A stretch of DNA of 64,000 nucleotides. It comes from Lentibacillus halodurans (GTDB lineage Bacteria; Bacillota; Bacilli; Bacillales; Amphibacillaceae). Positions within the stretch are counted from its first letter, which is position 1. Each line of letters begins with the position of its first letter. The stretch is from the NCBI RefSeq assembly GCF_900112045.1, contig NZ_FOJW01000002.1:131962-195961 (forward strand), written 5' to 3'. The notes beneath the pieces are model-generated. The model ran no database searches, was not told where the DNA came from, and saw nothing but the letters and a program-made list of their open reading frames with translations. A program made the position numbers and the translations under genes. Positions 27,408-51,310 of this stretch are shown in pieces.

Positions 27408-27480
27408 GATTCCGTAGCTCAGCTGGGAGAGCGCATGCTTGACAGGCATGAGGTCGTTGGTTCGAGCCCAATCGGAATCA
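27408..27480 (+). tRNA. tRNA-Val(GAC)
   Basis: Full cloverleaf: acceptor stem GATTCCG/CGGAATC, D-arm GCTC/GAGC, anticodon stem CATGC/GCATG around loop TTGACAG with anticodon GAC, and T-arm GTTGG-TTCGAGC-CCAAT. The discriminator base is A and CCA is not encoded. Its 3' half was supplied by the integrated island; the displaced original 3' end lies 23.8 kb downstream. Confidence 0.97.
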
Positions 27481-29638: not shown

Positions 29639-29675
29639 GAAGCAAAAAAACCCTTTAGAAGGGTTCTTTTGCTTC
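29639..29675. terminator. Bidirectional terminator between cargo module and integrase
   Basis: GAAGCAAAA and an inner AACCC pair with GGGTT and TTTTGCTTC. It separates convergent transcripts and overlaps the integrase stop region. Confidence 0.8.
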
Positions 29676-30852
29676 ACAAATTAATCACGTAGGGTAAATT
29701 GGTCTCTTTGATGGTGTTTTCATCATTGTTACTTGGTTTATTCCCGAAAAGCATGTTTCCAAATTGTTCGGCTGTTTCTTCTTGCATATTAGGCAGCAGA
29801 TGACTATAAGTATCCAATGTCATTCGGGTATCAGCATGTCCAAGTCTCTCTGAAACGACTTTTGGATGTGCGCCTTGTTTTAATAATAATGAGGCATGTG
29901 TATGCCGCAAATCGTGGAAGCTTATTTTTTTGAGATTGGCCTTTTTAATCTGAGCGTAGAAGTTGCGTAATAAGTTTCTAGGGTGTAGGGGCGTGCCTTC
30001 CTGTGTGGCAATTACTAATCCATGATCTGAATAAAAGGTACCGGATTTTAATTTTTCCTTGGCTTGATTAACTTTATGTTTATTCAGCTCATGCATCAAT
30101 TGATCTGGTAAGGCAATTGTCCTGGCTCCGGCAGCTGTCTTAGTTGAATTCTTCAATTCTCCAAAGTGACTCAGTGTTTGACGTACATTTAAAACGCCTC
30201 GGTCAAAATCAATATCTTTCCATCGGAGACCTAAAATTTCGCTTTGTCTCATGCCTGTGTTTATAGCAATTTGATAAACAATATAATATCTGTTGGTTTT
30301 AGTTACTTCTAAAAAATGTTGGACTTCATCGAGATCCCAAACTTCCACTTCTTTCTTCTGTACTTTTGGAAGTTCAATGAACTCAGTGACATTCTTAGGA
30401 ATATACTCGAATTTCACACCTTGCTTAAGCGCCTGACTAAGAAACTTATGAACATTTCTGATATTATCGTTAGACAATCCTTTTTCCTGACTGAGAGTAT
30501 GATATAACTGTTGTACATGCATTGCTGATAAATCAGGTAACATAATCTCTCCGATATAAGGAATCACATGACTGTTTACGGTTCTGCTATATTTCAAGTA
30601 GGTGTTTTCACCAACGGTCAATTGTTTATTCTTTAACCATTCACTTAAAAATTCATTCATTGTAATTTTCTTTGGTTCAACGTATGTACCGCTGTTTAAT
30701 TCATGGAGCATTTCTGTCATTGCTTTATGTGCTTCTTTCTTAGTTTTGAACCCTCGTTTCTTCTTTTGCTTACGCTTTCCGTTAATTCCCTTACCCATTT
30801 CAATGACATAATACCAACTTGTTTTATCCTTTCTAACAGATCCTGAATACAT
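29674..30852 (-). CDS. int: Tyrosine-recombinase integrase of the island
   Basis: 392 residues with the architecture of Gram-positive element integrases: an N-terminal arm-binding domain (SVRKDKTSWYYVIEMGKG; GFKTKKEAHKAM), a core-binding SAM-like domain (about 65-150) and the catalytic domain. The active-site residues are seen as GMRQSEILGLRW (Arg), HDLRHTHASLLLKQG (His-x-x-Arg), RLGHADTRMT (His) and DTYSHLL (Tyr nucleophile). It should catalyse integration into tRNA-Val. Downstream in its own direction lies the cargo module, convergent. Confidence 0.95.
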   Translation of the reverse strand: MYSGSVRKDKTSWYYVIEMGKGINGKRKQKKKRGFKTKKEAHKAMTEMLHELNSGTYVEPKKITMNEFLSEWLKNKQLTVGENTYLKYSRTVNSHVIPYIGEIMLPDLSAMHVQQLYHTLSQEKGLSNDNIRNVHKFLSQALKQGVKFEYIPKNVTEFIELPKVQKKEVEVWDLDEVQHFLEVTKTNRYYIVYQIAINTGMRQSEILGLRWKDIDFDRGVLNVRQTLSHFGELKNSTKTAAGARTIALPDQLMHELNKHKVNQAKEKLKSGTFYSDHGLVIATQEGTPLHPRNLLRNFYAQIKKANLKKISFHDLRHTHASLLLKQGAHPKVVSERLGHADTRMTLDTYSHLLPNMQEETAEQFGNMLFGNKPSNNDENTIKETNLPYVINL

Positions 30853-33926: not shown

Positions 33927-34190
33927 AAATCTTATACAATCCATTGTTACAATTTCCATTTTTTTAGATATATATAAAGTAAAATTTTTTTGCGAATAAT
34001 TATGTATTGACTCAATCAGTTTTCATTTTAAAAAATGCTGTTATGACAGGAGTTTTGTGTTTGTTGATACCTGGTTTTGAGAAAATGTTTAATGAAATTA
34101 GTCATCTTTAGCCCAACTTATGATGAAATAGATGGGAAGCCAGTGATGGCACTGGCTTCCAGTTGTCACACTGTCTTCCCAATAAGATTT

Positions 34191-34799
34191 TTATAGATAT
34201 CCTTTTTCTTTTAAGCTAGTATATTTTTCATGGCCGATAATAAGTGAATCGAGCAATTCAATACCTACCATTTTCCCCACATCTGCTAGTCGTCTTGTTA
34301 CGTGGATATCCTCCTGACTGGGCTGCGGTGAACCCGAAGGATGGTTGTGTGCACATACAGCACTTGCGCAACTTCTGCGTATCAAATGTTTGAACACTTC
34401 CCTTGGATGGGCTATTGATGCATTCAATGAGCCGATAAATACTGTTTCACGAAATAACACTTCATTTTTCGTGTTTAGTCCAAGAACTACAAAATGTTCT
34501 CTGTCTGCGTATTGAAGATCCTTCAAATACTCAAATCCATCTTCAGGTGAACGAATCGTAAATCGTTGTTCAACCGGGCATGGATTCATACGAGCAAGTT
34601 GTAGTGCGGCGATAATTTGTTTCGCTTTCACTTGCCCAATACCTTTGATTTGCAAAAGTTCTTCTTCCGTTACATCCAACAACTCTTGGATAGATGGGTA
34701 GCGGCTGAATAGTTCATTCACTACATAACTGTCTTCCTTTTCGCGAGTTGTTGTTGCCAATAGGTTTTTAAAAGTGATTTTATCAATTGAATTGTTCAT
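34191..34799 (-). CDS. radC: RadC-family JAB-domain protein
   Basis: 202 residues. An N-terminal helix-hairpin-helix region (ELLQIKGIGQVKAKQIIAAL) precedes the JAB/MPN+ metalloprotein domain with HLIRRSCASAVCAHNHPSGS and PSQEDIHVTRRLADVGK (HxH...D zinc motif), ending LLDSLIIGHEKYTSLKEKGY. RadC-like proteins are frequent on mobile elements and their exact role is unsettled. GGAGG lies 8 bases before the chosen ATG. Confidence 0.92.
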   Translation of the reverse strand: MNNSIDKITFKNLLATTTREKEDSYVVNELFSRYPSIQELLDVTEEELLQIKGIGQVKAKQIIAALQLARMNPCPVEQRFTIRSPEDGFEYLKDLQYADREHFVVLGLNTKNEVLFRETVFIGSLNASIAHPREVFKHLIRRSCASAVCAHNHPSGSPQPSQEDIHVTRRLADVGKMVGIELLDSLIIGHEKYTSLKEKGYL

Positions 34800-34964
34800 T
34801 ATAAATTCCTCCATTATTGTTTGATTGAATTAAAAAAGGAGAGACGATATACGCCCCTCCTAATTGAGTGAATAACTGTTATGAGATACAATGTAACTAA
34901 GCGATAATGCTAGTGTCCTTAAGCTGAGTTCATGCGCTGATGAGCTCATCTTTTTTGTGCATTA

Positions 34965-35003
34965 AAAAGCCCATTGACTGCATTTGCAATCTCATGGGCT
35001 TTT
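34965..35003 (-). terminator. Terminator of the leftward 35-kb transcript
   Basis: On the minus strand AAAAGCCCAT pairs with ATGGGCTTTT, followed by more T residues. It abuts the stop codon of the next leftward gene. Confidence 0.8.
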
Positions 35004-35763
35004 AATGATCATCTTGTGTATTTGGTTTTCTCACCTCCTGATATGCCTCCTTTAGATGGAGTAGATCCCTTATAAAATCAGATGCCTGTTTCTTTGTCAG
35101 CTGTGTGCTACGTTCAACACCATATGTCATCTTCATGATCTCTTTTGCAACTTCTGTTGACATATCGATGTCATTGACGATGCGAAATATCGTATACAGC
35201 TGAGGCTTCACAACGAATTCATCACCCCTTTTAGTGTTGGATTGTCGCGGAAAACTCTCGATATCTTGTGTGAACAATCCACTTGAACGTGTTGCTGAAA
35301 GAACAGCATCAATCAAAGCACGTTTCTTCGCCATCTTCAGCACTGTGTTTACGATTGTATAAGGATCTTGATGTTGAAATGATGATTCCTTGCTATTGCA
35401 TGAACCCAGACCCTCAGACTCGACGATTCCATTATCTTTACGTGTGAGTGTCGTCTTTACTTCATAGGCAAATATGCCGGATTCCCACTGTTCAATGCGG
35501 TTGACGACTTCAGCTGTTTTCGTGAAACCGAATGCATCACATAGCTTTTCTGCACCAGGCTTTAGTAACGTTGGTTTTGAAAAGCCTTGTACTAAACCGT
35601 AATCAACTCCTTTCACCATGGCGTCTTGAACGAATTGTTGTAGCTCATTAATTCGTTGTTGTGATTCAGTCGATGATACAACGACGTTAGGTAAGAACAG
35701 AGAATTTGCTTCGCTGTTACTTGAAAATGGCACAATATTATTCGTTTGTTTATCTGTCGTCAT
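35002..35763 (-). CDS. Mobile-element protein of unknown function
   Basis: 253 residues. A conserved-looking core reads KGVDYGLVQGFSKPTLLKPG followed by AEKLCDAFGF (about residues 55-83), then a strand-rich region (FAYEVKTTLTRKDNGIVESE) and QDPYTIVNTVLKMAKKRALI. The arrangement recalls phage-type single-strand-annealing or Erf/Rad52-like proteins, but I see no decisive motif. GGGGGTGA precedes the ATG. Likely co-transcribed with the next upstream genes and radC. Confidence 0.55.
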   Translation of the reverse strand: MTTDKQTNNIVPFSSNSEANSLFLPNVVVSSTESQQRINELQQFVQDAMVKGVDYGLVQGFSKPTLLKPGAEKLCDAFGFTKTAEVVNRIEQWESGIFAYEVKTTLTRKDNGIVESEGLGSCNSKESSFQHQDPYTIVNTVLKMAKKRALIDAVLSATRSSGLFTQDIESFPRQSNTKRGDEFVVKPQLYTIFRIVNDIDMSTEVAKEIMKMTYGVERSTQLTKKQASDFIRDLLHLKEAYQEVRKPNTQDDH

Positions 35764-35787
35764 TTTATATCACCCCCTTTCAATGGA

Positions 35788-36309
35788 TTAACGTCTATCC
35801 TTAATGACATCTGCTAGTTTAGATATACCATTGGATGTTTTTTGAACAAGGTATTTCCCAGCCTTATGATTTAGCTGGTTACCTTTTTTAATGGTTTTGT
35901 CAGAAACGTCTAATGTTTTCGATGCAATGTTATGTGCAGATTGATTTACTTTTTCGATGCTGTTGGTAACTTTAATCACTGCATCTTCTCCTTTAGTTCC
36001 GGTAAATTCTGCACTCCTGCTTAATCCATCAGCAATACGTTGTTTAAATGACTGTTGCTTGGATAGGTCATTCTCATGTAAAGCCTCGATTTCTTCTATT
36101 GCCGTTTGGATTTTGTTTCTCTTCGTTATTAAATTAGACAGTCTTACGTAGTCATTACGTTCAACTGAATCTACTATTTCATGTGCAATATCTTCATTCT
36201 GACTAAGCAAAGCTTTGTAGATTGTTTTAACCTCTGGAATCGAAATGCTTTTCCCATTTAACAATTCGGATTGACTGTCGTAACCTTTCCGAACATTCTT
36301 CTTCATCAT
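35788..36309 (-). CDS. Helical hypothetical protein
   Basis: 173 residues, almost wholly helical and charged, with coiled-coil character in the middle (RNKIQTAIEEIEALHENDLS) and a Lys-rich C-terminal half (KTLDVSDKTIKKGNQLNHKA). No family recognised. AGGAGG lies 7 bases before the ATG. It starts the leftward gene set or follows the 67-residue gene. Confidence 0.55.
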   Translation of the reverse strand: MMKKNVRKGYDSQSELLNGKSISIPEVKTIYKALLSQNEDIAHEIVDSVERNDYVRLSNLITKRNKIQTAIEEIEALHENDLSKQQSFKQRIADGLSRSAEFTGTKGEDAVIKVTNSIEKVNQSAHNIASKTLDVSDKTIKKGNQLNHKAGKYLVQKTSNGISKLADVIKDRR

Positions 36310-36368
36310 TGATTTCCTCCTAGTGATTGTTGTTAATTGACTGCCACTTGATAATAGAGGGCTTACAA

Positions 36369-36572
36369 TTAATGGTTGAAATAGTGGTAACCTCTTAAGG
36401 TTAGCTTCAACATCAAGCCGTCAGATTTGCTTCTTTTGATAAGAATCAAACCTTCATCTTCAAGGGCTAAAAGATCTACTTTTTTGATGTCATACTTAAC
36501 CAAAAACTTAACTGGAACCCACTTGTTCATTTCCTTGGCTCGAATGAGAATCTGTTCCAATGATCTATTCAT
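36369..36572 (-). CDS. Small winged-helix-like protein
   Basis: 67 residues from an ATG preceded by AAAGGAAG (the longer reading lacks a site). The pattern FLVKYDIKKVDLLALEDEGL followed by LKLTLRGYHYF suggests a small winged-helix or HTH fold. No family recognised. Confidence 0.5.
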   Translation of the reverse strand: MNRSLEQILIRAKEMNKWVPVKFLVKYDIKKVDLLALEDEGLILIKRSKSDGLMLKLTLRGYHYFNH

Positions 36573-36636
36573 CTTTGTTCTTCCTTTTATGAGTGCGCTC
36601 CTCTCACCGCGCTTGTCGTCTCTGTAAAGCACAAAA

Positions 36637-36718
36637 AAACCGTTATCTATCCAAATCGATGGATAAATAACGGTTTATATAAAAGGGGTGGGGCATGAAA
36701 CGGATGGGTACCCCTTTT
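36637..36718. terminator. Two adjacent hairpins before the BREX-like operon
   Basis: AAACCGTTAT with an inner ATCCA pairs with TGGAT and ATAACGGTTT (36637-36676). AAAAGGGGT at 36681 pairs with ACCCCTTTT at 36710. They insulate the BREX-like operon from the leftward genes. Confidence 0.6.
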
Positions 36719-36841
36719 CCTTATAATGAATGGTGGAGGGGAGAAAAAATGTTGCTATTTTTTATAATCTATTGTGTTACCAAAGAACTAGATATAAAAT
36801 AAAGATAAAGTATAAAAAATGTAAGAGTAGGTGACTTCAAC

Positions 36842-37108
36842 GTGGAAGTTAAACTTTTTCAAAAAACGCAAAGAGATTTAGCTGTATCGGTTAACTTAGT
36901 TATTGATACATATTGGGAAGATGGTATAAGTGAGAGTAAAATGGTGGAAATGATACAGAAGCTATATATTAATAATGAAAGCAAGTTTTTGAAGAATGGA
37001 AAATATACAACCGTGCTTCGTCAGCAGTGTGGTAAGAGAAGGTTGGAAGTCGTAAGTAGGGTGTTGAATATGGATCAAATGACGGCAAGTCAATCTATGT
37101 ATTTATAA
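36842..37108 (+). CDS. Small BREX-associated protein, TIGR04540-like
   Basis: 88 residues starting at GTG, with AGGTGA about 8 bases before. Sequence features are KTQRDLAVSVNLVIDTYWED and a basic LRQQCGKRRLEVVSRVLN. It resembles, from memory, the small uncharacterised family TIGR04540 found in Firmicutes; I am not certain. It is the first gene of the BREX-like operon and only 25 bases separate it from the BrxF-like gene. Regulator or accessory role is inference. Confidence 0.6.
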   Translation: MEVKLFQKTQRDLAVSVNLVIDTYWEDGISESKMVEMIQKLYINNESKFLKNGKYTTVLRQQCGKRRLEVVSRVLNMDQMTASQSMYL

Positions 37109-37133
37109 AATAATTAGCCAGGGTGTTGTTTTG

Positions 37134-37592
37134 ATGAGTTCAGATATAATGCAAGCTATAAATCGGGAACTAACTAATATTCAACTTAAAAGACATCAGT
37201 TAATTTTTCTAGTGACAGAACAATTTAAGAAAGATATCAAATGTGTTTCGGAGTCGCTAGAAGTTCCGTATGTTAATGTTAATTACGAACTAAGTGAAGT
37301 GTTGAAAGACTTGCCGTTGAAAAAAAGACCTAGACAAGTGAGTGAGTTTCTAACGAAAATAGTACGAAATAAAAATGCTGACACGCTAGTTATTGACAAT
37401 ATTGAGATCTTGTTTGACCCACAATTGCAACAAAATCCTGTTTTACTACTAGAGAATATTAGTCGAAATGTCACATTGATAGTTGGATGGAAAGGCCACT
37501 ATTCTGGCCGAAAATTAGTTTATAGCGAGCCGGAATATTATGATTATTTTACACATGAAAATACAGAAGGAATAATTATTAATTATACGTAG
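37134..37592 (+). CDS. brxF: BrxF-like protein of a BREX type-3-like system
   Basis: 152 residues. The NVNYELSEVLKDLPLKKRPRQ stretch, DTLVIDNIEILFDPQLQQNP (Walker-B-like Asp) and the closing NVTLIVGWKGHYSGRKLVY plus YSEPEYYDY match my recollection of BrxF, named as a P-loop protein. The Walker A expected after LIFLV is missing: here it reads TEQFKKDIKCV, without GxxGxGK[ST]. ATP binding is therefore doubtful. It lies directly before the large BrxC-like ATPase, the order of type-3 BREX. Confidence 0.75.
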   Translation: MSSDIMQAINRELTNIQLKRHQLIFLVTEQFKKDIKCVSESLEVPYVNVNYELSEVLKDLPLKKRPRQVSEFLTKIVRNKNADTLVIDNIEILFDPQLQQNPVLLLENISRNVTLIVGWKGHYSGRKLVYSEPEYYDYFTHENTEGIIINYT

Positions 37593-37605
37593 AGGGGGAA
37601 AAGCC

Positions 37606-40600
37606 ATGAAATATAGTGATTTAATTCATTTTGAACCGATTGAATCCGTTGTACAGTTAAAAGATGCAGATGAAAAGCAAAGTGCTTTTAATTTATTAGA
37701 CACATATGTTATTTCAGAACGAATGGCTGAAATCTTAGATGAATTGGTAATGGAACAGTTACAGTTTAACCGCCCGGCCGATAATAAAAGTATGTTAATT
37801 GTCGGTAATTATGGAACAGGTAAATCTCATTTAATGAGTGTTATATCAACAATTGCTGAGCTGGATGGTTCTAGTGAAAGAGTTCAAAATGAAAAAGTAG
37901 CAAATAAAGCAAAAGAAGTTGAAGGAAAGTTTAAGGTTATCCGAACAGAAATTGGAAGCGTCCAAACATCTTTTAGAGATATTATTTGCGGTGCCATTGA
38001 AGATGGCCTGGAAGATTTAGGTGTAGATTATACGTTTCCAGCCGTAGATGAAATTCGAAATAATAAAGATTCCTTAATGGAAATGATGGCTGCTTTCCAT
38101 GAAGTCTACCCAGATCAAGGGTTACTTTTAGTTGTTGATGAATTACTTGACTACTTGAAAGGCAGGAAAGAACAAGAACTGTTTTTAGATCTCGGTTTCT
38201 TAAGAGAACTTGGAGAAATCTGCAGTAAAACGAAATTCAGATTTATTGCTGGCGTGCAAGAGATGTTGTTCGATAATCCGAAATTTCAATTTGTTGCCGA
38301 ACAATTACGCCGTGTAAGGGAAAGGTTCGAACAGGTGAGTATTGTTAGAGAAGATATTGCTTATGTTGTCTCTCAAAGACTTCTTAAGAAGGACGATAAA
38401 CAAAAAGCATTAATCCGTGAGCATTTACAAAAATTCACGAACTTATATGATCGCTTGGGTGAAGAATTAGAGCAGTATGTTAATTTATTCCCGATTCATC
38501 CGTCTTACTTATCAACGTTTGAAAAGGTTACAGTGGCTGAGAAGCGAGTCATACTCAAAACATTGAGTAATGAAATGAGAAAGGTTATGGAAAATGAGGT
38601 GCCGGATGGTAAGCCTGGATTAATTTCGTTTGATAGTTATTGGCCATATATTGAAAATGATCCTTCGTTAAAAAGTAATCCGGACATAAAAGAAGTCATG
38701 ACCAAAACAAAAATATTACAGGATAAAGTAGAAAATGCATTTACTAAGCCATTATATAAGCCTATGGCTAGACGAATCGTCCAAGCTCTTGCTGTGTTTA
38801 GACTTACAACAGATGATATCTATGCACAATTAGGACTAACTCCTGAAGAATTAAAGGATAATTTATTATTACACATCGATTTGCTGGATGAGGATGACGC
38901 TGCATATTTCTTAAAAACGACCGTAGAGTCTGTATTAAAAGAAATCCAAAAGACGGTCAGTTACCAATATATTTCGGCAAATGAAACGAACGGTCAATAC
39001 TTCTTAGACATAAAAAAAGATGTGGCAGTGGATGATTTAATCGAGCAAAAAGCTGAGGGACTTGTCGATGATCAGTTAGACAGATATTATTTCGAAGCAT
39101 TAAAGCGAGCCACTGAAGTGTCAGATTCGACTTATAAAACAAACTATCGGATATGGATGCATGAGTTACCTTGGCCAAACCAAAAAGTGACAAGACAAGG
39201 GTACATCTTCTTTGGGGCACCGAATGAACGATCAACTGGACAGCCTCCAAGAGACTTTTATATTTATTTACTTCAGCCTTTTGCACCACCAAAGTTTAAA
39301 GATGAACACAAGTCAGATGAAGTGTTCTTTAAGCTTGTAGATAAAGATGAAGCATTCATGCGTTCATTAAAACTTTATGCCGGTGCACAAGAGATGGCTG
39401 TAACAGCAGCAAGCAGTACAAGAAAACTTTATGAATCGAAAGCAGACACTTACCTGAAAGAGCTAGTTAAATGGTTAAGAGAAAATTTAACAACAGCTTT
39501 TGAATTAACGTATAAGGGTAAAACAGATCGGGTAGCAGAATACGATATATTTATTACACCAGGAGCTACGGTTAAAGAAGTGATAAATGATGTTTCTTCG
39601 GAATGCTTAAGTCAACATTTTGATGAAAAATATCCAGATTATCCTGCCTTTGGTAAATTACAAACACCAATGACTAATGAAAGTTTATCAATATATGTCC
39701 AAGATGCTTTGAAAAATTTGAATGGAGCTAATAATAGACAGGGTTATGCTATACTCAATGGATTAGTGCTATTGGATGAAAAAGGAAAATTGAACCCTCG
39801 TCAATCCGGATATGCAAAATGGGTGATTGAGAAATTAGAAGGAAAAGCACAAGGACAGGTCGTAAATCATTCTGAGTTTATTGAGGATGTCTATACAAGT
39901 CAAGGAATAGAAGATATTAAGCAAACTAAAGAATTTAAGATGGAACCTGAGCTATTTACAGTTGTATTAGCAGCCTTAGTCAATAATGGAGATATTGTCA
40001 TCACAATAGATGGCAAAACTTATGATGCCATGAATTTTGAAGAACTTGTTAAGGTATCGTTAAATGACTTCACTAGTTTCAGTCATATTAAGAAGCCAAG
40101 CGGTCTACCAATGCCATCGATTCGGGCGATCTTTAATCTGTTTGATATTGATGAAGCATTAACAAGGGAACATGCTCTACAGACGGGTATCGCACAGATG
40201 CTTAGTGAGTCACGTAAGGTTCTTGAAGAAATTGTCAAAATGTCTAATGACGTGAAAGATGGATTCCCGATTTGGGAAGGAAAAATACTATCTGAATCTG
40301 AAATTAATGATTATAGGGAACAGTTAAGTACATTTAAAGAGTTTTTGGAAGGGTTACAAGTTTACAATTCTAAAGCCAAACTCCAAAACTTAAAATACAC
40401 AGTTGAGGAAATTAAGGAACAAGCTAATGCACTAAAACTGTTAGACGACCTCAAAAACTTAAGGGATAAATCCTTCGAGTATGGAAAGGAGATTTCTTAT
40501 CTTCAAACGGCACAACATCAATTACCTCAAGAGTATAAGTGGCATGATGATGTTGAAAATGCCATAACGGATTTAGTACATGCTCTTAAAGAAGGTGAAA

Positions 40601-41289
40601 ATGCACAAAAAGAGTTTCAAGCTTTAGAAGAAATAAAAAATAAATACATTGATATATATATGCAGTTGCACAATCAGCATCGAATAAATGCAACTGAAGA
40701 TAACGAAAAAAGTAAATTATTGAATGATCAAAGACACCAGGCATTAAAAGAGTTATCAGATATTAATATATTGCCTTCTCAAATCTTACAAGATTGGCAG
40801 CAAAAGATAAATTCGTTGAAATCATGTTGGAACCTTACTAAGGAAGACTTGCACCAGAAGCCAATTTGTCCACATTGCCGTTTCAGGCCTAAAGATGAAA
40901 ATCTTAACAATAAAGCAAGCCTGGAAATTCTTAGTGAGAATTTAGATGAGTTATTAAATAATTGGACAGAATCACTTATAGCTAACTTAAATGATGATGA
41001 AGTGAGGAAAAGCATCTCCCTTTTGAATGAGGATGAAAAACAAATTATTAACGAACTACTAGATAAAGGCGAGTTAAGGTTACCTATTGATGTTAAGTTC
41101 ATCCAAGTTATAAAGGAATTATTTCAAGGTATTGAGAAAGTCGAAGTTTCAATTTCAGATCTAAAAGAAACGTTTGCTAATGGATCACCACTTACCATAA
41201 ATGAAGTAAGAAATCGTTTTGAACAAATGCTAAGAGAACAAGTTGGAAATTTCTCATCTGATCGTGTGAGAATTATGTTAAAACAATAA
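37606..41289 (+). CDS. brxC: BrxC/PglY-type ATPase, DUF6079-like
   Basis: 1227 residues. Near the N-terminus are Walker A (LIVGNYGTGKSHLMSVIST, about residue 67) and Walker B (LLLVVDELLDYL, about residue 180), then an AAA-like region with RFIAGVQEMLFDNPKF. A long, largely helical body follows, with coiled coil around 920-1080 and a single CPHC near residue 1092. The arrangement fits the large P-loop protein of BREX loci (BrxC/PglY; DUF6079-type as far as I can judge). It should be the core ATPase of phage exclusion. It is 13 bases after brxF. Confidence 0.8.
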   Translation: MKYSDLIHFEPIESVVQLKDADEKQSAFNLLDTYVISERMAEILDELVMEQLQFNRPADNKSMLIVGNYGTGKSHLMSVISTIAELDGSSERVQNEKVANKAKEVEGKFKVIRTEIGSVQTSFRDIICGAIEDGLEDLGVDYTFPAVDEIRNNKDSLMEMMAAFHEVYPDQGLLLVVDELLDYLKGRKEQELFLDLGFLRELGEICSKTKFRFIAGVQEMLFDNPKFQFVAEQLRRVRERFEQVSIVREDIAYVVSQRLLKKDDKQKALIREHLQKFTNLYDRLGEELEQYVNLFPIHPSYLSTFEKVTVAEKRVILKTLSNEMRKVMENEVPDGKPGLISFDSYWPYIENDPSLKSNPDIKEVMTKTKILQDKVENAFTKPLYKPMARRIVQALAVFRLTTDDIYAQLGLTPEELKDNLLLHIDLLDEDDAAYFLKTTVESVLKEIQKTVSYQYISANETNGQYFLDIKKDVAVDDLIEQKAEGLVDDQLDRYYFEALKRATEVSDSTYKTNYRIWMHELPWPNQKVTRQGYIFFGAPNERSTGQPPRDFYIYLLQPFAPPKFKDEHKSDEVFFKLVDKDEAFMRSLKLYAGAQEMAVTAASSTRKLYESKADTYLKELVKWLRENLTTAFELTYKGKTDRVAEYDIFITPGATVKEVINDVSSECLSQHFDEKYPDYPAFGKLQTPMTNESLSIYVQDALKNLNGANNRQGYAILNGLVLLDEKGKLNPRQSGYAKWVIEKLEGKAQGQVVNHSEFIEDVYTSQGIEDIKQTKEFKMEPELFTVVLAALVNNGDIVITIDGKTYDAMNFEELVKVSLNDFTSFSHIKKPSGLPMPSIRAIFNLFDIDEALTREHALQTGIAQMLSESRKVLEEIVKMSNDVKDGFPIWEGKILSESEINDYREQLSTFKEFLEGLQVYNSKAKLQNLKYTVEEIKEQANALKLLDDLKNLRDKSFEYGKEISYLQTAQHQLPQEYKWHDDVENAITDLVHALKEGENAQKEFQALEEIKNKYIDIYMQLHNQHRINATEDNEKSKLLNDQRHQALKELSDINILPSQILQDWQQKINSLKSCWNLTKEDLHQKPICPHCRFRPKDENLNNKASLEILSENLDELLNNWTESLIANLNDDEVRKSISLLNEDEKQIINELLDKGELRLPIDVKFIQVIKELFQGIEKVEVSISDLKETFANGSPLTINEVRNRFEQMLREQVGNFSSDRVRIMLKQ

Positions 41290-41306
41290 TTGCGGAGGCC
41301 GTTTAT

Positions 41307-44042
41307 ATGACTGATAAGAATAAGCAGCTAACAATGATTAACGAAAACAAAGATGAAGACGAGCAACCAGTGACAGTACTTGGTATGACATTTAAAAATG
41401 ATCAAGAAAGAAGAGAGTATTTTACAGAAGAATTAAGAAAAAAGCTTCCCGAACTAAAGGAAATAGAAGGATTTCCGATGGGTGAGGATGAAGATATCCT
41501 TGCCTTATCGGATCCTCCTTATTATACAGCATGCCCTAACCCTTGGATCAGCGATTTCATTGAACAGTGGGAAGACGAAAAATCAAATACTGTTAGGGAA
41601 GAAAGTTACCATAGAGAAACATTCGTGGCGGATGTTAGTGAGGGAAAAAGTGATTCAGTATATAAAGCACATAGTTACCACACTAAAGTACCACACAAGG
41701 CAATTATGAGATATTTATTTCATTATACTAGACCTGGTGAAATTGTTTACGATGGTTTTGCTGGCACTGGTATGACAGGAGTGGCAGGGGCGATGTGTGG
41801 AGATCGAAACTCAAGTGAAGATCTAGGGTATATTGATAATAATGAAATCGGTGGAAGAAAAGTTGTTTTAGGGGATTTATCTCCAATTGCTTCATATATT
41901 GCGTATAACTATAATACTCCCATAGAAACAGCTTCTTTTGAAGAAGAGGCTTATAATATAATTAGTGAAGTTGAAAATGAGTTTACATGGATGTATGAGA
42001 CTTATCATAACAATAACGAGAAGGCAAAGATAAATTATACAGTGTGGAGTGATGTATTTATTTGTCCAAACTGTACAAGTGAAATTGTTTTTTTTGAGGC
42101 TGCAGTAGACTATAAAAATGGTAAAGTTTATAAAGAGTTTTGCTGCCATTCATGCCAAGCAAAACTAAAGAAGAAAGGTCTTGAAAGGTCTTGGGAAACA
42201 AAAGTCGACATAAACACCAATAAAACTATTGAACAAATAAAGCAAGTACCTGTATTGATAAATTATACTTATAATAAGAAGAAACATAATAAAAAACCTG
42301 ATAAATTCGATCTGAATAATTTAATGAAAATAGATAAAATGAATATATATTACTGGTATCCAAATGATAGAATGCCCCTAGGAGATGAATCAAGGAGAAA
42401 TGATAGAACGGGGCACACTCATGTTCATCATTTATATACAAAAAGAAACTTGATGATATTATCCATGTTAAGAGAGAAATTTCTTAACAGCAAACACAGG
42501 AATGCGTTGATGCTTTTATTTACAAGTCATCTTATTAATTTATCAAAGTTAAACCGGTATAGACCTAGTGTATCTTTTCCTTACAACCCTTTAAGTGGGA
42601 CGTTATATATGGGATCGCAAATTTCTGAAGCGAACCCCTTTATTGCATACAAAAATAAGGTGAAAAGGTTCGTTTCTGCCTTTTACATGAACGAAGTAAA
42701 TGCCGTTATTGAGACATCGTCACTTACGGACACAAATATTAAAGATAATTCAATTGATTATATATTTACAGACCCGCCATTTGGTGCAAATATTATGTAC
42801 TCAGAATTAAGCTTTATGTGGGAATCTTGGATAAAAGTTATTACTAATAACCAGAATGAAGCGGTAATAAATAAAACTCACAATAGATTACTACCTGATT
42901 ATCAAGAATTAATGCAAGACTGTTTTGAACAATATTATAGGGTTTTAAAACCAGGGAGATGGATCACAGTTGAATTTAGTAACTCTAAAGCTAGTGTATG
43001 GAATGCAATTCAAGAATCATTACAAAGAGCTGGTTTTGTCATAGCGAATGTATCAGCTTTAGATAAAAAAATGGGTAGTTTTAAGGCTGTTACTACAACT
43101 ATAGCAGTTAAACAAGATCTCGTAATTTCAGCATATAAGCCATCCAAAAAAATGATACAGGAAATTGAAAGTAATGATAGAAGTTCCGAAACTGCTTGGG
43201 CTTTTATTAAACAGCACCTTGAAAATCTTCCCGTGTTTATGGGTGACAAAGGAGAAGCACATCAAATAGTTGAAAGAACCCCAAGGGTTTTATTTGATAG
43301 AATGGTTGCTTATCATGTTCAAAACGGTTTAGTAGTACCGATATCGTCTGGTGATTTTCAGGCAGAGGTGACTCAAAGGTTTCCGATTAGAGATGGAATG
43401 GTTTTCCTAGAAAATCAAGTCGCAGAGTACGACAAGAAGAGAATATTAGTTAAGGATTTTACACAAACAACCCTCTTTGTTTCGGATGAAAACAGTGCCA
43501 TTGAATGGATTCGTCAGCAATTAATGAAAAAGCCACAAACGAGACAAGATTTACATCCTAATTTTATGAAAGAAATTCAGCATATCCATAAACATGAACT
43601 GCTACCTGAATTAGATCAACTGTTAGAACAAAACTTTTTGGAATATGTAGGGGACGGCCCTGTTCCAGATCAAATTGCGAGCTATCTTAAAAAAAATTAC
43701 AAGAGTGTAAGAGGTCTTGAAAATGATCATTCTGATATGAAAAATCTAGGCATGAACCGTTGGTATGTTCCTAATCCAAACAAACAAGCAGATCTTGAAA
43801 AATTACGTGAGAGATCACTATTACGTGAATTTGAGTCTTATGTTGAAGAGGTAAGTAAAAGTCGGAAGAAACTAAAACAGTTCCGCACAGAAGCTATTCG
43901 AGCAGGTTTCAAGAAGGCTTGGAGCGACAAAGAATACCAAAAAATCGTGGATGTGGGTGAACGGCTGCCTGAAAAGGTTATTCAGGAAGATGATAAGTTA
44001 TTAATGTATTTTGATAATGCACAAATACGATTAGGAATGTAA
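41307..44042 (+). CDS. pglX: PglX-like DNA methyltransferase of the BREX-like operon
   Basis: 911 residues. The N-terminal half contains the SAM-binding motif I YDGFAGTGMTGVAGAM (about residue 150). A zinc-ribbon insertion follows (FICPNCTSE and CCHSCQAK, about 250-290). The catalytic motif is DPPFGANIMYSELSFMWESW (about residue 490), with GRWITVEFSN after it. DPPF indicates an amino-methyltransferase, adenine N6 being usual for PglX. The C-terminal third is unrecognised and may bind DNA. In BREX it marks host DNA. The ATG follows GCGGAGGCC. Confidence 0.82.
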   Translation: MTDKNKQLTMINENKDEDEQPVTVLGMTFKNDQERREYFTEELRKKLPELKEIEGFPMGEDEDILALSDPPYYTACPNPWISDFIEQWEDEKSNTVREESYHRETFVADVSEGKSDSVYKAHSYHTKVPHKAIMRYLFHYTRPGEIVYDGFAGTGMTGVAGAMCGDRNSSEDLGYIDNNEIGGRKVVLGDLSPIASYIAYNYNTPIETASFEEEAYNIISEVENEFTWMYETYHNNNEKAKINYTVWSDVFICPNCTSEIVFFEAAVDYKNGKVYKEFCCHSCQAKLKKKGLERSWETKVDINTNKTIEQIKQVPVLINYTYNKKKHNKKPDKFDLNNLMKIDKMNIYYWYPNDRMPLGDESRRNDRTGHTHVHHLYTKRNLMILSMLREKFLNSKHRNALMLLFTSHLINLSKLNRYRPSVSFPYNPLSGTLYMGSQISEANPFIAYKNKVKRFVSAFYMNEVNAVIETSSLTDTNIKDNSIDYIFTDPPFGANIMYSELSFMWESWIKVITNNQNEAVINKTHNRLLPDYQELMQDCFEQYYRVLKPGRWITVEFSNSKASVWNAIQESLQRAGFVIANVSALDKKMGSFKAVTTTIAVKQDLVISAYKPSKKMIQEIESNDRSSETAWAFIKQHLENLPVFMGDKGEAHQIVERTPRVLFDRMVAYHVQNGLVVPISSGDFQAEVTQRFPIRDGMVFLENQVAEYDKKRILVKDFTQTTLFVSDENSAIEWIRQQLMKKPQTRQDLHPNFMKEIQHIHKHELLPELDQLLEQNFLEYVGDGPVPDQIASYLKKNYKSVRGLENDHSDMKNLGMNRWYVPNPNKQADLEKLRERSLLREFESYVEEVSKSRKKLKQFRTEAIRAGFKKAWSDKEYQKIVDVGERLPEKVIQEDDKLLMYFDNAQIRLGM

Positions 44043-44063
44043 TGTGGAGAGTAGGATGTTTAT

Positions 44064-46016
44064 ATGGCAAGCTGGAGAGATGAAATTCTGAAAGTAACAG
44101 CAGAACCGGTATCGTTTCTATACGTTATATCCGATCCAGATGGTTTATTAAATGATGAAACCATCCTGACAAAGCTTCAAAGTAAAAATATAGAAATGAT
44201 TGAAATTGAAGATGTTATTAGTTTCCGGTATGTATTCGAGTCTAAATACCGAAAAGCCATTTACAATCGTGAAAAAGCCTTAGTTGTACGAACAGAACTG
44301 GAAGATTTTCATAAGTTACCATATGATTTATTAAAGCTTGGAAGCAAACACAAAATCAGTTTATCCAACATATTTCCAAAACTCTCCTATCCAATCATTA
44401 AACAATTAAGTACAACAGACTTAGATGCCTTGTATACTGTTTATCAGCAGTATCAAGGTTCTTCGTCTGATACTGACACCATTAAATTTTTACTTAATAG
44501 GGTTTATAAAATTTACCCAGAGATTATTGAATCCACCTCTGATTTCATTAAATTCTTGCTTTCATATCATTATCAAGAGATTCAATTACCCGAGGAATTA
44601 GAAAAATATATTATAGATAGTCTAAATCAGGTTGACATGCTGAATGCACTGCCAGTAAAAAGATTGATACAATCAAGAAGTTATTTTTACTCATACCTTC
44701 AAGATGAATGGGATGAGTATATTTCTCAATTACATAATGAAAGTGAACAAATCAAAGATCCATTTGATGCCCAATCACACTATCATACAAAGCATTCATT
44801 TTCTCATCCGGATGTAAGAAGACTGCTAAATGATTTATTTTATGAAAACAAATTGCACCCGATTAAAGGTTATGAGAAGGAAACATTACCAAATTGGACG
44901 CATCCAGGTATTATTGTAGATGAAGCGGGTGACAAGAAAGATAGGATTTATAAATTACTTAATACAGTTAGAGAAAAATTAAATGGTCATACATCATATA
45001 AAATTTGGATAGAGATTGCCAAGTTATATGGAGAGCTGGGTAATTTATTTTTTTCCTTTAAGAATGAGTTAGATAAAGAAACAACCACAACTTTTGGTGA
45101 GCTAACAAACCAAATAAATCGAGAATTTGAGTATTGGATGTTTGAAAGTTATAGTACGCTTTATAACATACCATACTATCCAAGTCCGGTCATGGTTGAT
45201 AGAATTCCGCATTATTTAGAAAGTCTAAAACGTGACAAAATAGCATTAATCGTACTTGATGGAATGAACTTTATTCAATGGAGTCAGGTGAAACAGTCAC
45301 TGTTAAATAATAATATTCAAGTTAATGAGAATGGCATCTTTGCTTGGGTTCCAACATTAACATCCATCTCAAGACAGGCTATATTCTCCGGTGAAATTCC
45401 GATGATGTTTTCTGATAGTATTCATACAACAAATAAAGAGGAAAAACTCTGGAAAACGTTTTGGGAAAATCATAGTATATCAAAACAAAAGGTTTCCTAT
45501 CAAAGATCGCTAGGACAAGGTGATTTTAATAAGGAACAAATTGAGGCACTCAAAAGAAACGATATAAGAGTGGCAGGTTTAGTCGTTGATACAATTGATG
45601 AATTAACTCATGGGGCAATTCAAGGTCACAAGGGAATGCACGCTGAAATAGATATTTGGCTTAAAAATAACTACCTATTGAATTTGATTCGAGACCTAGG
45701 TGAATCTGGGTACTCCATTTTTATAACTTCAGATCACGGAAATACTGAAAGTTATGGGAATGGAAGGTTATCTGACGGTGTATTAGTTCAATCTAAGGGA
45801 GAAAGAGTCAGGATTTATAAGGATAAGCTAACCCGGGATGAAAGAGCAGATGAGTTTTCACTTTTAAGATGGCCTAACATTGGTATTCCAGAAGATATGC
45901 ATGTATTGTTAGCTAATGAGAACAAAGCTTTTATCCCTAAACAGGAACAAGCAGTAAGTCACGGATCTATCAATATCAATGAAGTGATTGTTCCATTTGT
46001 AGAAGTTAATCCATAA
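44064..46016 (+). CDS. pglZ: PglZ-domain alkaline-phosphatase-superfamily protein
   Basis: 650 residues. The C-terminal half is a PglZ domain: ALIVLDGMNFIQWSQVK (first metal-binding Asp, about residue 397), VPTLTSISRQAIFSGEIP (Thr/Ser nucleophile region), VDTIDELTHG and IFITSDHGNTESYGNGR (Asp-His metal ligands). The N-terminal half is helical. PglZ is the defining component of every BREX type and is also found in other defence loci. It follows pglX by 21 bases in the same operon. Confidence 0.88.
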   Translation: MASWRDEILKVTAEPVSFLYVISDPDGLLNDETILTKLQSKNIEMIEIEDVISFRYVFESKYRKAIYNREKALVVRTELEDFHKLPYDLLKLGSKHKISLSNIFPKLSYPIIKQLSTTDLDALYTVYQQYQGSSSDTDTIKFLLNRVYKIYPEIIESTSDFIKFLLSYHYQEIQLPEELEKYIIDSLNQVDMLNALPVKRLIQSRSYFYSYLQDEWDEYISQLHNESEQIKDPFDAQSHYHTKHSFSHPDVRRLLNDLFYENKLHPIKGYEKETLPNWTHPGIIVDEAGDKKDRIYKLLNTVREKLNGHTSYKIWIEIAKLYGELGNLFFSFKNELDKETTTTFGELTNQINREFEYWMFESYSTLYNIPYYPSPVMVDRIPHYLESLKRDKIALIVLDGMNFIQWSQVKQSLLNNNIQVNENGIFAWVPTLTSISRQAIFSGEIPMMFSDSIHTTNKEEKLWKTFWENHSISKQKVSYQRSLGQGDFNKEQIEALKRNDIRVAGLVVDTIDELTHGAIQGHKGMHAEIDIWLKNNYLLNLIRDLGESGYSIFITSDHGNTESYGNGRLSDGVLVQSKGERVRIYKDKLTRDERADEFSLLRWPNIGIPEDMHVLLANENKAFIPKQEQAVSHGSININEVIVPFVEVNP

Positions 46017-46032
46017 ACAGTGAGGGATGCTC

Positions 46033-46743
46033 ATGGCAAAACCAGTAGGATTTGATCAAAAAATATTACTACATCAATTGGATTTTACATTGAATGAAGC
46101 TAGAAGGACAAAACGTAAAGAGATGTATGAAAAATTAGACGAGTTCCTAATCGATGATATTAGAGGTGTTAAATCAAGAAAGAATGCAGCTACTATGCTG
46201 ATGAAAATTTGGTACTTGGTAAACGATGATAATAAACATCTTCAAGAAAATGCATTTCACTTATACCCAGATTTACGTAATGATGAACGTTTGGTTCTCC
46301 ATTATGGCATGACGGTTTTGGCTTACCCCTTTGTAAAAGACTTGGTTCGGGAGATGGGAAAATTATTTAAATTGCAGGATGAAGTCACTGCTCAACAAAT
46401 TAGCCGCATTATGAAAAATTTATATGGTGATAGAAGAAGAGTAGAGGTTGCAACAAGTGCTGTACTCATGAGCCTGAAATCGTGGGGGGTCATTTCATCC
46501 GGGGACAAAAGACATATTTATATAACTGGTGAAAATTTGTCTATCCAAGCTACCGAAGTTAAAAAGTGGTTAGCAGAAGCTATTATTCGTTCTTCGGAGG
46601 GGTCATCGATAACATTAGAAGAATTAAATTCAAATTCAGTTTTCTTTCCGTTTGATTACACTATATCTTCATCAAATTTAGACGACGAATACTTTCGAAT
46701 TAACAGGCAAGGATTGGATATGATTATGGTTGGAGTTGTATAG
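46033..46743 (+). CDS. Unrecognised last gene of the BREX-like operon
   Basis: 236 residues from the second of two near ATG codons, GAGGG being 6 bases upstream. Largely helical (RRTKRKEMYEKLDEFLIDDI; HYGMTVLAYPFVKDLVREMG), then a winged-helix-like segment (DEVTAQQISRIMKNLYGDRR and EVATSAVLMSLKSWGVIS). The middle loosely recalls the helical layout of BrxA (DUF1819) but no diagnostic motif is seen, so I do not name it. It takes the place where a helicase or BrxA would be expected. Confidence 0.7.
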   Translation: MAKPVGFDQKILLHQLDFTLNEARRTKRKEMYEKLDEFLIDDIRGVKSRKNAATMLMKIWYLVNDDNKHLQENAFHLYPDLRNDERLVLHYGMTVLAYPFVKDLVREMGKLFKLQDEVTAQQISRIMKNLYGDRRRVEVATSAVLMSLKSWGVISSGDKRHIYITGENLSIQATEVKKWLAEAIIRSSEGSSITLEELNSNSVFFPFDYTISSSNLDDEYFRINRQGLDMIMVGVV

Positions 46744-47205
46744 CCCTTATTCCTTTGAATGAGGGTAAATTATCATTTATTAAAAGGATTAAAAACCACT
46801 ATAGACTTCAATCAATCAAAAGAAATTTGGAGTAAAACGAAGCAATTATAAGGTAGTTCCTAATGGGAGAGTAGAGAAGACTAACCTTATGATTTAATGT
46901 AATCCAGGGGATTGATCTTTTGCATTACCTTCTCTTTTCGAAGCAGACGAACCGTCCCCATGCTTACAAAAGTGGCATTTTATAGTAGTTATTATGTAGA
47001 TATACCCTTATTTAAAAAGGTGAAATGAAAAGAAATACCTCTCAATTACTACATAATGGTAGTTGTCGGGTGACTAAACAGCAAAAGGCTAGGAGTACTC
47101 TTTATAACCAATCACCATTCCTTGCCTTTTACCATAGTATGAAAATACAATATGTATTATAATATACAGTTTACAAAACTATATAAGAAAGGAGGAGTAA
47201 AGAAA
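46744..47205. other. Spacer between BREX-like operon and protease pair
   Basis: About 460 bases without a supportable gene. A weak hairpin (CCCTTATTC with GAATGAGGG) follows the last BREX gene, and an interrupted inverted repeat (TTATTATGTAG near 46990, CTACATAATGG near 47048) lies in the middle. The promoter of the next pair is presumably here. Confidence 0.4.
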
Positions 47206-48207
47206 ATGGCTCGTGCAGACCTTTTATTAAAACTTGTAAAATCAGGTTCTAAAGGAGATTTAAATCTTTTTAATAAAACTGTAGAAGCGATTATTGCAGA
47301 GGAAAGAAGTAAGAACCATGGTATACTTGCGGATAATCTATTGGAAGCATTAAGACAAAATAAAAAAAACAGTTACACTAATGGATCAAATAATATCAAT
47401 TCATTATCATTAAATAAAAGTAGTTTATATTTTGAATCGGTTCCTGAAATTAACTTACATGACCTTATATTAGAACCAAAATTATTGGAATCATTCAATG
47501 GTTTAATTGAGGAACATTTTCGAAGTGATATGTTAAGATCGTACAATTTAGAGCCTAGGAATAGAGTCTTACTAGCTGGCCCTCCGGGTAACGGGAAAAC
47601 ATCAATCGCAGAGGCATTAGCAAAAGAGTTAATGCTACCTTTTATTTCAGTACGTTACGAAGGTGTTATTGATAGTTATCTTGGGGAGACATCAAACAAA
47701 TTAAATGATTTATTTGAGTATGTAAGATCCAGAAGGTGTATACTGTTCTTTGATGAGTTCGATACCATAGGGAAAGAAAGAGGAGATTCCCAAGAAACCG
47801 GTGAGATAAAAAGGGTTGTCAGTTCACTGTTACTTCAAATTGATCGATTACCGAGTCATGTTATTGTTGTAACTGCAACGAATCATCCTGAACTATTGGA
47901 CAGAGCAGTATGGAGAAGATTCCAAATTAAGTTAGAACTTGACCAACCAACAAAAAAACAAATTAGTGAATGGTTGGATAAATTTGAATTCGATAATAAT
48001 ATTTCACTGGAGTACTCTAAAAGAACACTGGTAGATAATCTTTCGGGATTAAGTTTTTCGAACCTCAATGACTTTGGATTAGACATTAGAAGAAAATATG
48101 TTTTATCTTTACCAGACGCTGATATGCGTAAAATTGTTAAGGAAACATTAAGGGATTTAAGAAGTCAGTATTTATACTCAGATTTAAGGAGTGATAACAG
48201 TGAATGA
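47206..48207 (+). CDS. ietA: IetA-like AAA ATPase
   Basis: 333 residues from the ATG preceded by AAAGGAGG. One AAA domain in the C-terminal two thirds: LLAGPPGNGKTSIAEALAKE (Walker A, about residue 125), SRRCILFFDEFDTIGKERGD (Walker B), VIVVTATNHPELLDRAVWRR (sensor 1 and arginine finger), and a Leu-rich lid. The N-terminal 90 residues are helical. Paired with a subtilisin-like protease, it matches the IetAS plasmid-stabilisation / anti-phage pair. Its stop overlaps the protease start by 8 bases, so the two are coupled. Confidence 0.8.
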   Translation: MARADLLLKLVKSGSKGDLNLFNKTVEAIIAEERSKNHGILADNLLEALRQNKKNSYTNGSNNINSLSLNKSSLYFESVPEINLHDLILEPKLLESFNGLIEEHFRSDMLRSYNLEPRNRVLLAGPPGNGKTSIAEALAKELMLPFISVRYEGVIDSYLGETSNKLNDLFEYVRSRRCILFFDEFDTIGKERGDSQETGEIKRVVSSLLLQIDRLPSHVIVVTATNHPELLDRAVWRRFQIKLELDQPTKKQISEWLDKFEFDNNISLEYSKRTLVDNLSGLSFSNLNDFGLDIRRKYVLSLPDADMRKIVKETLRDLRSQYLYSDLRSDNSE

Positions 48208-51267: not shown

Positions 51268-51310
51268 TTGACAGGCATGAGGTCGGTGGTTCGAGCCCAC
51301 TCGGAATCAT
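51268..51310 (+). repeat. attR: displaced 3' end of tRNA-Val
   Basis: A 43-base near-copy of attL with two substitutions, one in each side of the T-stem. The altered pair changes T-A to G-C, so both versions fold. Without the 5' half it cannot make a tRNA. It is the scar of the original host tRNA 3' end. Confidence 0.88.

What the first reader, a model, noticed from the sequence alone, without database searches (positions are those of the whole stretch)
36842..46743. BREX type-3-like operon without a visible helicase
The gene order small protein, BrxF-like, BrxC/DUF6079-like ATPase, PglX-like methyltransferase, PglZ resembles type-3 BREX, which as I know it also has the helicase BrxHII and BrxA. 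Here no DEAD/SNF2-type motif is seen in any product, and the operon ends with an unrecognised 236-residue protein in the helicase/BrxA position. All frames are intact, so this may be a compact variant rather than a decayed locus.
Basis: partly seen in the sequence, partly recalled or inferred. Interest (0 to 1): 0.75.

Follow-up and report, generated by a model that had tools for sequence, protein, structure and literature searches.

The report
Phage-defence operon missing its helicase
This is a type-3 BREX phage-defence operon on a mobile island that has lost the helicase gene its closest relatives carry at the end of the operon, with another defence gene pair now in that place.

Summary
The six reading frames exist. 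No BREX helicase was found in the window or genome. The absence is a loss: the nearest relatives found (BrxC 82, 76, 74% identical) have a SNF2 helicase after brxA, broken in one; helicase and BrxC trees agree; DNA homology stops 33 bp after brxA. The window keeps a hairpin that precedes the helicase in relatives, then carries IetAS-like genes. Both lie in a 23.8-kb tRNA-Val island. In my sample 14 of 48 scored type-3 loci lack a helicase, with at least 10 changes on the tree; a 2026 survey gives BrxHII in 77% of type-3 taxa (PMC12839542). So this is a helicase-less derivative of a known system. Less expected: this clade's helicase is of a kind also found in type-1-like BREX, and sits elsewhere than canonical BrxHII. 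Activity without it is untested.

The parts
36842..37108 (+). small ORF, TIGR04540 family, function unknown; possible accessory, homologue before brxF in L112 and L113 only
37131..37592 (+). brxF
   Evidence: NF033453 122.7 bits (cut-off 50), PDLC02497 121 bits
37606..41289 (+). brxC / DUF6079 ATPase, 1227 aa; Walker A GNYGTGKS and acidic D178-E179 kept
   Evidence: PF19557 1393 bits, PDLC02482 1545 bits; 0 of 73 conserved columns changed
41307..44042 (+). pglXI (BrxXI) DNA methyltransferase, 911 aa; DPPF and FAGTG motifs and four cysteines (253, 256, 280, 283) kept
   Evidence: PDLC02541 1290 bits, PF01555 50.5 bits
41788..42741 (+). middle of pglXI, largely without DNA similarity to relatives; probably the exchangeable target-recognition region (inference)
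   Evidence: gap between blastn segments to L112-L117 (short matches inside it for L112 and L114)
44064..46016 (+). pglZ type 3 (similar to PorX, phosphatase-like fold); D399, T431, D557, H558, H633 kept
   Evidence: NF033449 671 bits (cut-off 250); phmmer to 8ted E 1.2e-9
46027..46743 (+). brxA (type-3 BrxA), 238 aa
   Evidence: PDLC02437 172 bits E 2.9e-51
46743..46766 (+). hairpin after brxA (10-bp stem), also present at the brxA-helicase junction of near relatives
   Evidence: z -2.80, 1 of 200 shuffles as stable
46776..47151 (+). after the end of homology to relatives, where their helicase begins; no significant helicase remnant
47152..48207 (+). ietA-like AAA ATPase of a neighbouring IetAS-like defence pair
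   Evidence: PDLC04232 484 bits
48191..50776 (+). ietS-like subtilase (S8) of the IetAS-like pair
   Evidence: PDLC04233 1083 bits, PF00082 70 bits
27439..27481 (+). left att copy, inside and at the end of tRNA-Val(GAC) 27408-27480
   Evidence: 18-bp exact repeat; 41 bp at 95% to the right copy; tRNA
29674..30852 (-). tyrosine integrase of the island
   Evidence: PF00589 103 bits
51268..51310 (+). right att copy (tRNA-Val 3' half), end of the island

Best explanation
This is a five-gene type-3 BREX operon (brxF-brxC-pglXI-pglZ-brxA, preceded by a small TIGR04540 gene) that lost its last gene, a SNF2-family BREX helicase. In its clade that helicase sits after brxA, mostly behind a hairpin, as a separable 3' module, and it is lost repeatedly. 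Shown: gene identities by profile, no BREX helicase found in the assembly, the break in homology, relatives with the helicase in that place, agreement of helicase and BrxC trees, little sign of decay in the remaining genes. Inferred: PglXI still methylates host DNA at a site set by its variable middle region; BrxC, BrxF and BrxA assemble on unmodified incoming DNA; PglZ (its type-1 relative is reported as a nicking nuclease, PMC12839542) is the effector. Without the helicase the system probably still modifies, and either restricts more weakly, uses a host SNF2 helicase, or leans on the adjacent IetAS-like pair as an independent second layer.
For: Gene identities. In the 3.67-Mb assembly the helicase search hits only a 557-aa and a 1055-aa SNF2 protein; weak SNF2 hits of about 107-120 bits occur in 11 of 17 genomes tested, the helicase-bearing control G844 included, whose own BREX helicase is found at 1399 bits. 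Relatives L112, L113, L114 (BrxC 82/76/74%) carry the helicase after brxA. Homology L112-window ends at 46776, L113-window at 46767, L114-window at 46755 (brxA stop 46743). Window nested inside helicase-bearing rows: supports 99*, 99*, 100*. Helicase tree: L112+L113+L114 100*, L115+L116 97*. Loss in progress elsewhere: a 145-aa remnant in L049, frame breaks in L113 and L116. Hairpin stems of 8 bp or more in 9 of 13 brxA-helicase junctions. No faster evolution in the window: 231 unique amino-acid changes against 250 in L112, none of five genes significant; conserved-site deviations 0 of 73 (BrxC), 4 of 145 (PglXI, rank 18 of 52), 0 of 37 (PglZ).
Against: The loss may be very recent; then normal rates in the window branch say nothing about function afterwards. 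Other helicase-less loci are damaged or odd: L058 has an interrupted brxC, L085 a split pglXI, and L118 has a BrxC branch about four times that of its sister L116 with 4 of 74 conserved sites changed. PglXI of the window changes a proline conserved in 51 of 51 others (P to T at 105). The BrxA name rests on PADLOC: Pfam BrxA does not match and a profile comparison with type-1 BrxA was not significant. The junction hairpin is absent in 3 of 13 relatives and weak in one, and not better than shuffles in L052 and L055. No expression, methylation or phage data.
Confidence: 0.78

Rival explanations
1. Decaying locus: loss of the helicase abolished restriction and the other five genes are on their way out, kept for now by recency or by self-methylation alone.
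For: Helicase remnant in L049 and frame breaks in L113 and L116; helicase-less L058 has an interrupted brxC and L085 a split pglXI; one invariant PglXI proline changed in the window.
Against: All five window genes intact, dN/dS 0.05-0.21 where dS could be estimated (near saturation), no acceleration, no excess of conserved-site changes. A helicase-less clade of four loci from three genera of one family (L082, L083, L085, L087; support 100*) has persisted, three of the four with unbroken genes.
Confidence: 0.25
2. The IetAS-like genes replaced the helicase as functional partner: one recombination swapped helicase for IetAS and the two act together.
For: The IetAS-like pair begins 409 bp after the brxA stop, same strand, same island; another helicase-less type-3 locus, L096, has ietAS directly upstream.
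Against: ietAS in 2 of 14 helicase-less against 0 of 34 helicase-bearing loci, Fisher p 0.08 with the window itself counted; IetAS is known as a stand-alone system (recalled); the hairpin and 385 bp separate the units.
Confidence: 0.1
3. Ancestral compact type-3 BREX that never had a helicase; relatives gained it.
For: Counts of changes on the tree do not by themselves separate gain from loss.
Against: Window nested three forks deep in helicase-bearing rows, helicases inherited with BrxC, and the window keeps the junction hairpin.
Confidence: 0.04

Closest known systems
Type-3 BREX (BrxF, BrxC, PglXI, BrxHII, PglZ, BrxA)
   Same: Five of the six core proteins; NCBIfam BREX-3 models for BrxF and PglZ passed over their cut-offs
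   Different: No BrxHII; in this clade the helicase, where present, lies after brxA and not between pglXI and pglZ
Type-1-like BREX with a terminal helicase (resembles type 5, recalled)
   Same: The helicase family of the window's clade (PDLC02620) also occurs next to type-1-like pglX/pglZ: of 10 class genomes with it, 5 are type-3 loci, 4 type-1-like by profile and 1 judged type-1-like from gene sizes only
   Different: BrxC, PglX and PglZ there match type-1-like models; the window's are type 3
DISARM (DrmD helicase)
   Same: PADLOC labels the relatives' helicase DrmD (PDLC02620, 1305 and 1245 bits in L002 and L086)
   Different: Typed neighbours are BREX proteins; their PglX also match the DISARM methylase model DrmMI, but with lower scores
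IetAS
   Same: AAA ATPase and S8 protease pair adjacent to the operon
   Different: Separate unit; below the NCBIfam cut-offs of IteA (212 of 510 bits) and IteS (82 of 900), so a divergent form

Membership tests
Type-3 BREX | BrxF | tested here: met
   NF033453 122.7 bits, cut-off 50
Type-3 BREX | BrxC of the DUF6079 kind | tested here: met
   PF19557 1393 bits; PDLC02482 1545 bits
Type-3 BREX | PglXI-type methyltransferase | tested here: met
   PDLC02541 1290 bits
Type-3 BREX | PglZ of type 3 | tested here: met
   NF033449 671 bits, cut-off 250
Type-3 BREX | BrxA | tested here: met
   PADLOC PDLC02437 172 bits; Pfam BrxA not matched; structure model too poor (pLDDT 39); profile link to type-1 BrxA not significant
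Type-3 BREX | BrxHII helicase (reported in 77% of type-3 taxa, PMC12839542, so common but not universal) | tested here: not met
   none found in window or assembly; hence filed as a helicase-lacking derivative, not as a complete type-3 system
Type-3 BREX | phage resistance and host methylation | not testable with these tools
   needs experiment
DISARM | DrmA/DrmB/DrmC with a DISARM methylase | tested here: not met
   no DISARM model among the PADLOC hits listed for the eight proteins scanned; other window genes were not scanned with PADLOC
IetAS (neighbour) | AAA ATPase plus S8 protease pair | tested here: met
   PADLOC IetA/IetS 484 and 1083 bits, below NCBIfam cut-offs

The most novel reading that the evidence does not exclude
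In one clade of type-3 BREX, mostly from relatives of this host's class, the canonical middle helicase was exchanged for one of the type-1-like BREX kind, set behind a hairpin as a plug-in 3' module. The five-gene core works without any helicase, so the helicase is an optional, swappable upgrade, and in this strain the IetAS-like pair has taken the slot as a functional substitute.
Probability: 0.12. Interest if true: 0.6.

Novelty: new variant of a known kind. Interest (0 to 1): 0.37.

Why it matters
What the helicase does in type-3 BREX is not established in the passages I read. A natural series of close relatives with intact, broken and absent helicase beside otherwise similar operons makes its role directly testable. 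The clade also suggests that a BREX helicase can be exchanged between BREX types and change its place in the operon.

Tried and rejected
Helicase hidden in one of the six proteins: no support. Helicase remnant in the gap after brxA or after ietS: nothing significant. Helicase elsewhere in the genome: only two SNF2 proteins, which I take for housekeeping genes (YqhH- and YwqA-like are recalled names, not tested). DISARM: disfavoured by neighbours. BrxA by fold: an AlphaFold model from three rows had pLDDT 39.4 and was not used. hhalign of 38 type-3 against 5 type-1 BrxA gave probability 2.1% over 142 columns; a control against BrxF gave 5.1%, against PglZ 0.2%. IetAS as partner: p 0.08 only. 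Relatives of BrxC in phage records and viral contigs: none found. Plasmids: 7 records; 3 of 7 looked at: Enterococcus faecium with no annotated helicase, Leisingera with the canonical order and a helicase between methylase and pglZ, Klebsiella with arsenic genes soon after brxC and no further BREX gene annotated. Promoter and terminator scans of three loci found no more sites than shuffles would (within about 1.3 sd).

Literature: PMC12839542 (outline and abstract, passages, sections 14, 20 and 40, part 1 of 2 of section 35), PMC12458937 and PMC10799925 (passages only). Searches for helicase-less type-3 BREX or its neighbours; no paper seen that describes it, but only open-access papers are held, other hits were seen as listings only, and the founding BREX paper is not held. 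I do not claim that it is undescribed.
Full report
WHAT IS THERE. The six ORFs at 36842-46743 are intact and on one strand. PADLOC, NCBIfam and Pfam identify BrxF (37131-37592), BrxC/DUF6079 (37606-41289), PglXI (41307-44042), type-3 PglZ (44064-46016) and BrxA (46027-46743; PADLOC only). The first small ORF is TIGR04540, of unknown function. Directly downstream lie an IetA-like ATPase and an IetS-like subtilase.

NO HELICASE. None of the six proteins is named a helicase by the three libraries. 40 BREX helicase sequences or fragments gave no convincing match in the 64-kb window (best E 0.001). In the assembly (3.67 Mb, 31 contigs) the search hits only two SNF2 proteins of 557 and 1055 aa. I then searched 17 genomes with both helicase kinds at E 1e-30 or better: all 15 scored here as helicase-less (L058's included), one unscored (G556) and one helicase-bearing control (G844, found at 1399 bits). 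Of the 15 only G111 and G201 hold a BREX helicase, each in a second type-3 operon (L059, L075). Weak SNF2 hits of about 107-120 bits, in open frames of 500-1059 aa, occur in 11 of the 17, G844 included.

HOW COMMON IS THIS. Loci came from a phylum sample of 398 genomes (40 places chosen by hand among near-full-length DUF6079 matches; partial and contig-cut rows left out), a class sample of 398 (12 places) and two named contigs, which I take to be two of the class places because contig lengths and scores agree: 52 distinct loci. An order sample of 397 gave 7 more. With the window this makes 60. L061 and L073 had broken BrxC and were not in the tree; L058 was dropped for the final count. Of 57 rows, 9 could not be scored (contig end or disturbed locus). 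I scored the rest by hand: 21 with the helicase between pglXI and pglZ, 13 with it after brxA, 14 with none, 48 in all. Presence/absence needs at least 10 changes on the tree; the quick tree has long-branch warnings for L091, L094 and L098. Downstream of brxA often only 0.1-4 kb were at hand, so "none" rests also on the genome searches above. A 2026 survey gives 702 taxa, 77% of type-3, with BrxHII (PMC12839542, passages), which fits.

IT IS A LOSS. The window's BrxC is sister to L112 (82% identity), then L113 and L114 (supports 99*, 99*, 100*). All three have a SNF2 helicase gene after brxA, broken by a frame change in L113. DNA homology to L112 covers 36755-46776 with gaps, at about 75%, and ends 33 bp after the brxA stop. 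The helicase tree has L112, L113 and L114 together at 100* and L115 with L116 at 97*, as in the BrxC tree apart from helicase-less L118, so the gene was inherited with the operon. L049 keeps short helicase remnants after brxA and L116 has a frame break; assembly errors cannot be excluded for the frame breaks. L118 has a protein with a restriction-enzyme-like domain there instead.

THE JUNCTION. Between brxA and helicase, 9 of 13 loci have a stem of 8 bp or more whose letters differ between lineages; L080 has a weak one; L002, L054 and L116 have none. Shuffle z-scores (13 of 14 stretches tested): window -2.80, L112 -2.86, L113 -4.26, L114 -2.38, L115 -1.93, L117 -4.44, L086 -3.24; but L052 -0.49, L055 -0.95, L080 -0.24, L002 -0.55, L054 +0.72, L116 +1.82. 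Of three loci given to the pattern scan (window, L117, L114) only the L114 copy counted as terminator-like. I read the hairpin as an end or attenuator of the brxF-brxA transcript that makes the helicase a separable unit; this is inference.

A DIFFERENT HELICASE. The helicase after brxA is not the canonical one. In L002 and L086 it matches PADLOC PDLC02620, labelled DrmD, at 1305 and 1245 bits, and the BrxHI/BrxHII model PDLC02500 at only 370 and 343, a model that the middle-position helicase of L067 matches at 1531. In the class sample 10 of 398 genomes have this family at E 1e-150 or better: five are type-3 loci already mapped; in four others the neighbours typed are type-1-like PglZ, PglX or BrxC; in the fifth (L163) I judged the neighbours from gene sizes only. 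On the helicase tree the 13 type-3 copies form one group (support 81) next to four type-1-like copies and far from six middle-position BrxHII. So the clade probably exchanged its helicase for a type-1-like BREX one before some members lost it.

IS IT ALIVE. Five genes against L112 with L113 as outgroup: 231 changes unique to the window, 250 to L112, no gene significant; dN/dS 0.05 for brxC, 0.09 brxA, 0.15 pglZ, 0.21 pglXI, with dS 1.4-2.0 and so near saturation; not computable for brxF. The window changes 0 of 73 conserved BrxC columns, 4 of 145 PglXI columns (rank 18 of 52) and 0 of 37 PglZ columns. The middle of pglXI has little DNA similarity to relatives while its flanks have much, as expected if a target-recognition region is exchanged. 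Against: the loss could be too recent to show, and one PglXI proline invariant in 51 others is changed.

SETTING. tRNA-Val(GAC) at 27408-27480 and a repeat at 51268-51310 (18 bp exact, 41 bp at 95%) bracket 23.8 kb of mostly lower G+C with a tyrosine integrase at 29674-30852. BREX and the IetAS-like pair are thus probably cargo of one integrative island, IetAS at its right end. I did not show an empty site. L117 and L113 share the RadC-side genes (34106-36772 and 34190-35694) at about 72%, so part of the island backbone travels with such operons.

MECHANISM. Most likely modification by PglXI and PglZ-centred restriction by the BrxF-BrxC-BrxA-PglZ assembly, with the helicase an enhancer for processing DNA that this strain lacks. 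PglZ as a nicking nuclease is reported for type 1 (PMC12839542, section 40) and carried over here by inference. Whether the five genes restrict phage alone is the open question.

Noticed in passing
27408-51310: Integrative island at tRNA-Val; the two att copies differ by two bases that look by eye like a paired change in the T-stem, and a same-genus genome has a 41-bp match 98% identical to the right att.
   Followed up: partly
47152-50776: Divergent IetAS-like pair, far below the NCBIfam cut-offs for IteA and IteS; another such pair lies next to a helicase-less type-3 BREX in L096.
   Followed up: partly
36842-37108: TIGR04540 small protein 22 bp before brxF, shared with L112 and L113 only; a candidate operon accessory of unknown function.
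   Followed up: partly
L056:2973-5094: Two ORFs matching prokaryotic Argonaute models lie between pglXI and pglZ of a helicase-less type-3 BREX, in the place of BrxHII.
   Followed up: no
L118:9891-12443: 851-aa protein with a type II restriction-enzyme-like domain in the helicase position after brxA; its BrxC branch is unusually long.
   Followed up: no
L068:709-7043: Several ORFs, one matching a Cas10 (type III-C) model, lie between brxC and pglXI of a type-3 BREX operon.
   Followed up: no
L082, L083, L085, L087: A supported clade of helicase-less type-3 BREX from three genera of one family, evidence that the state can persist.
   Followed up: partly
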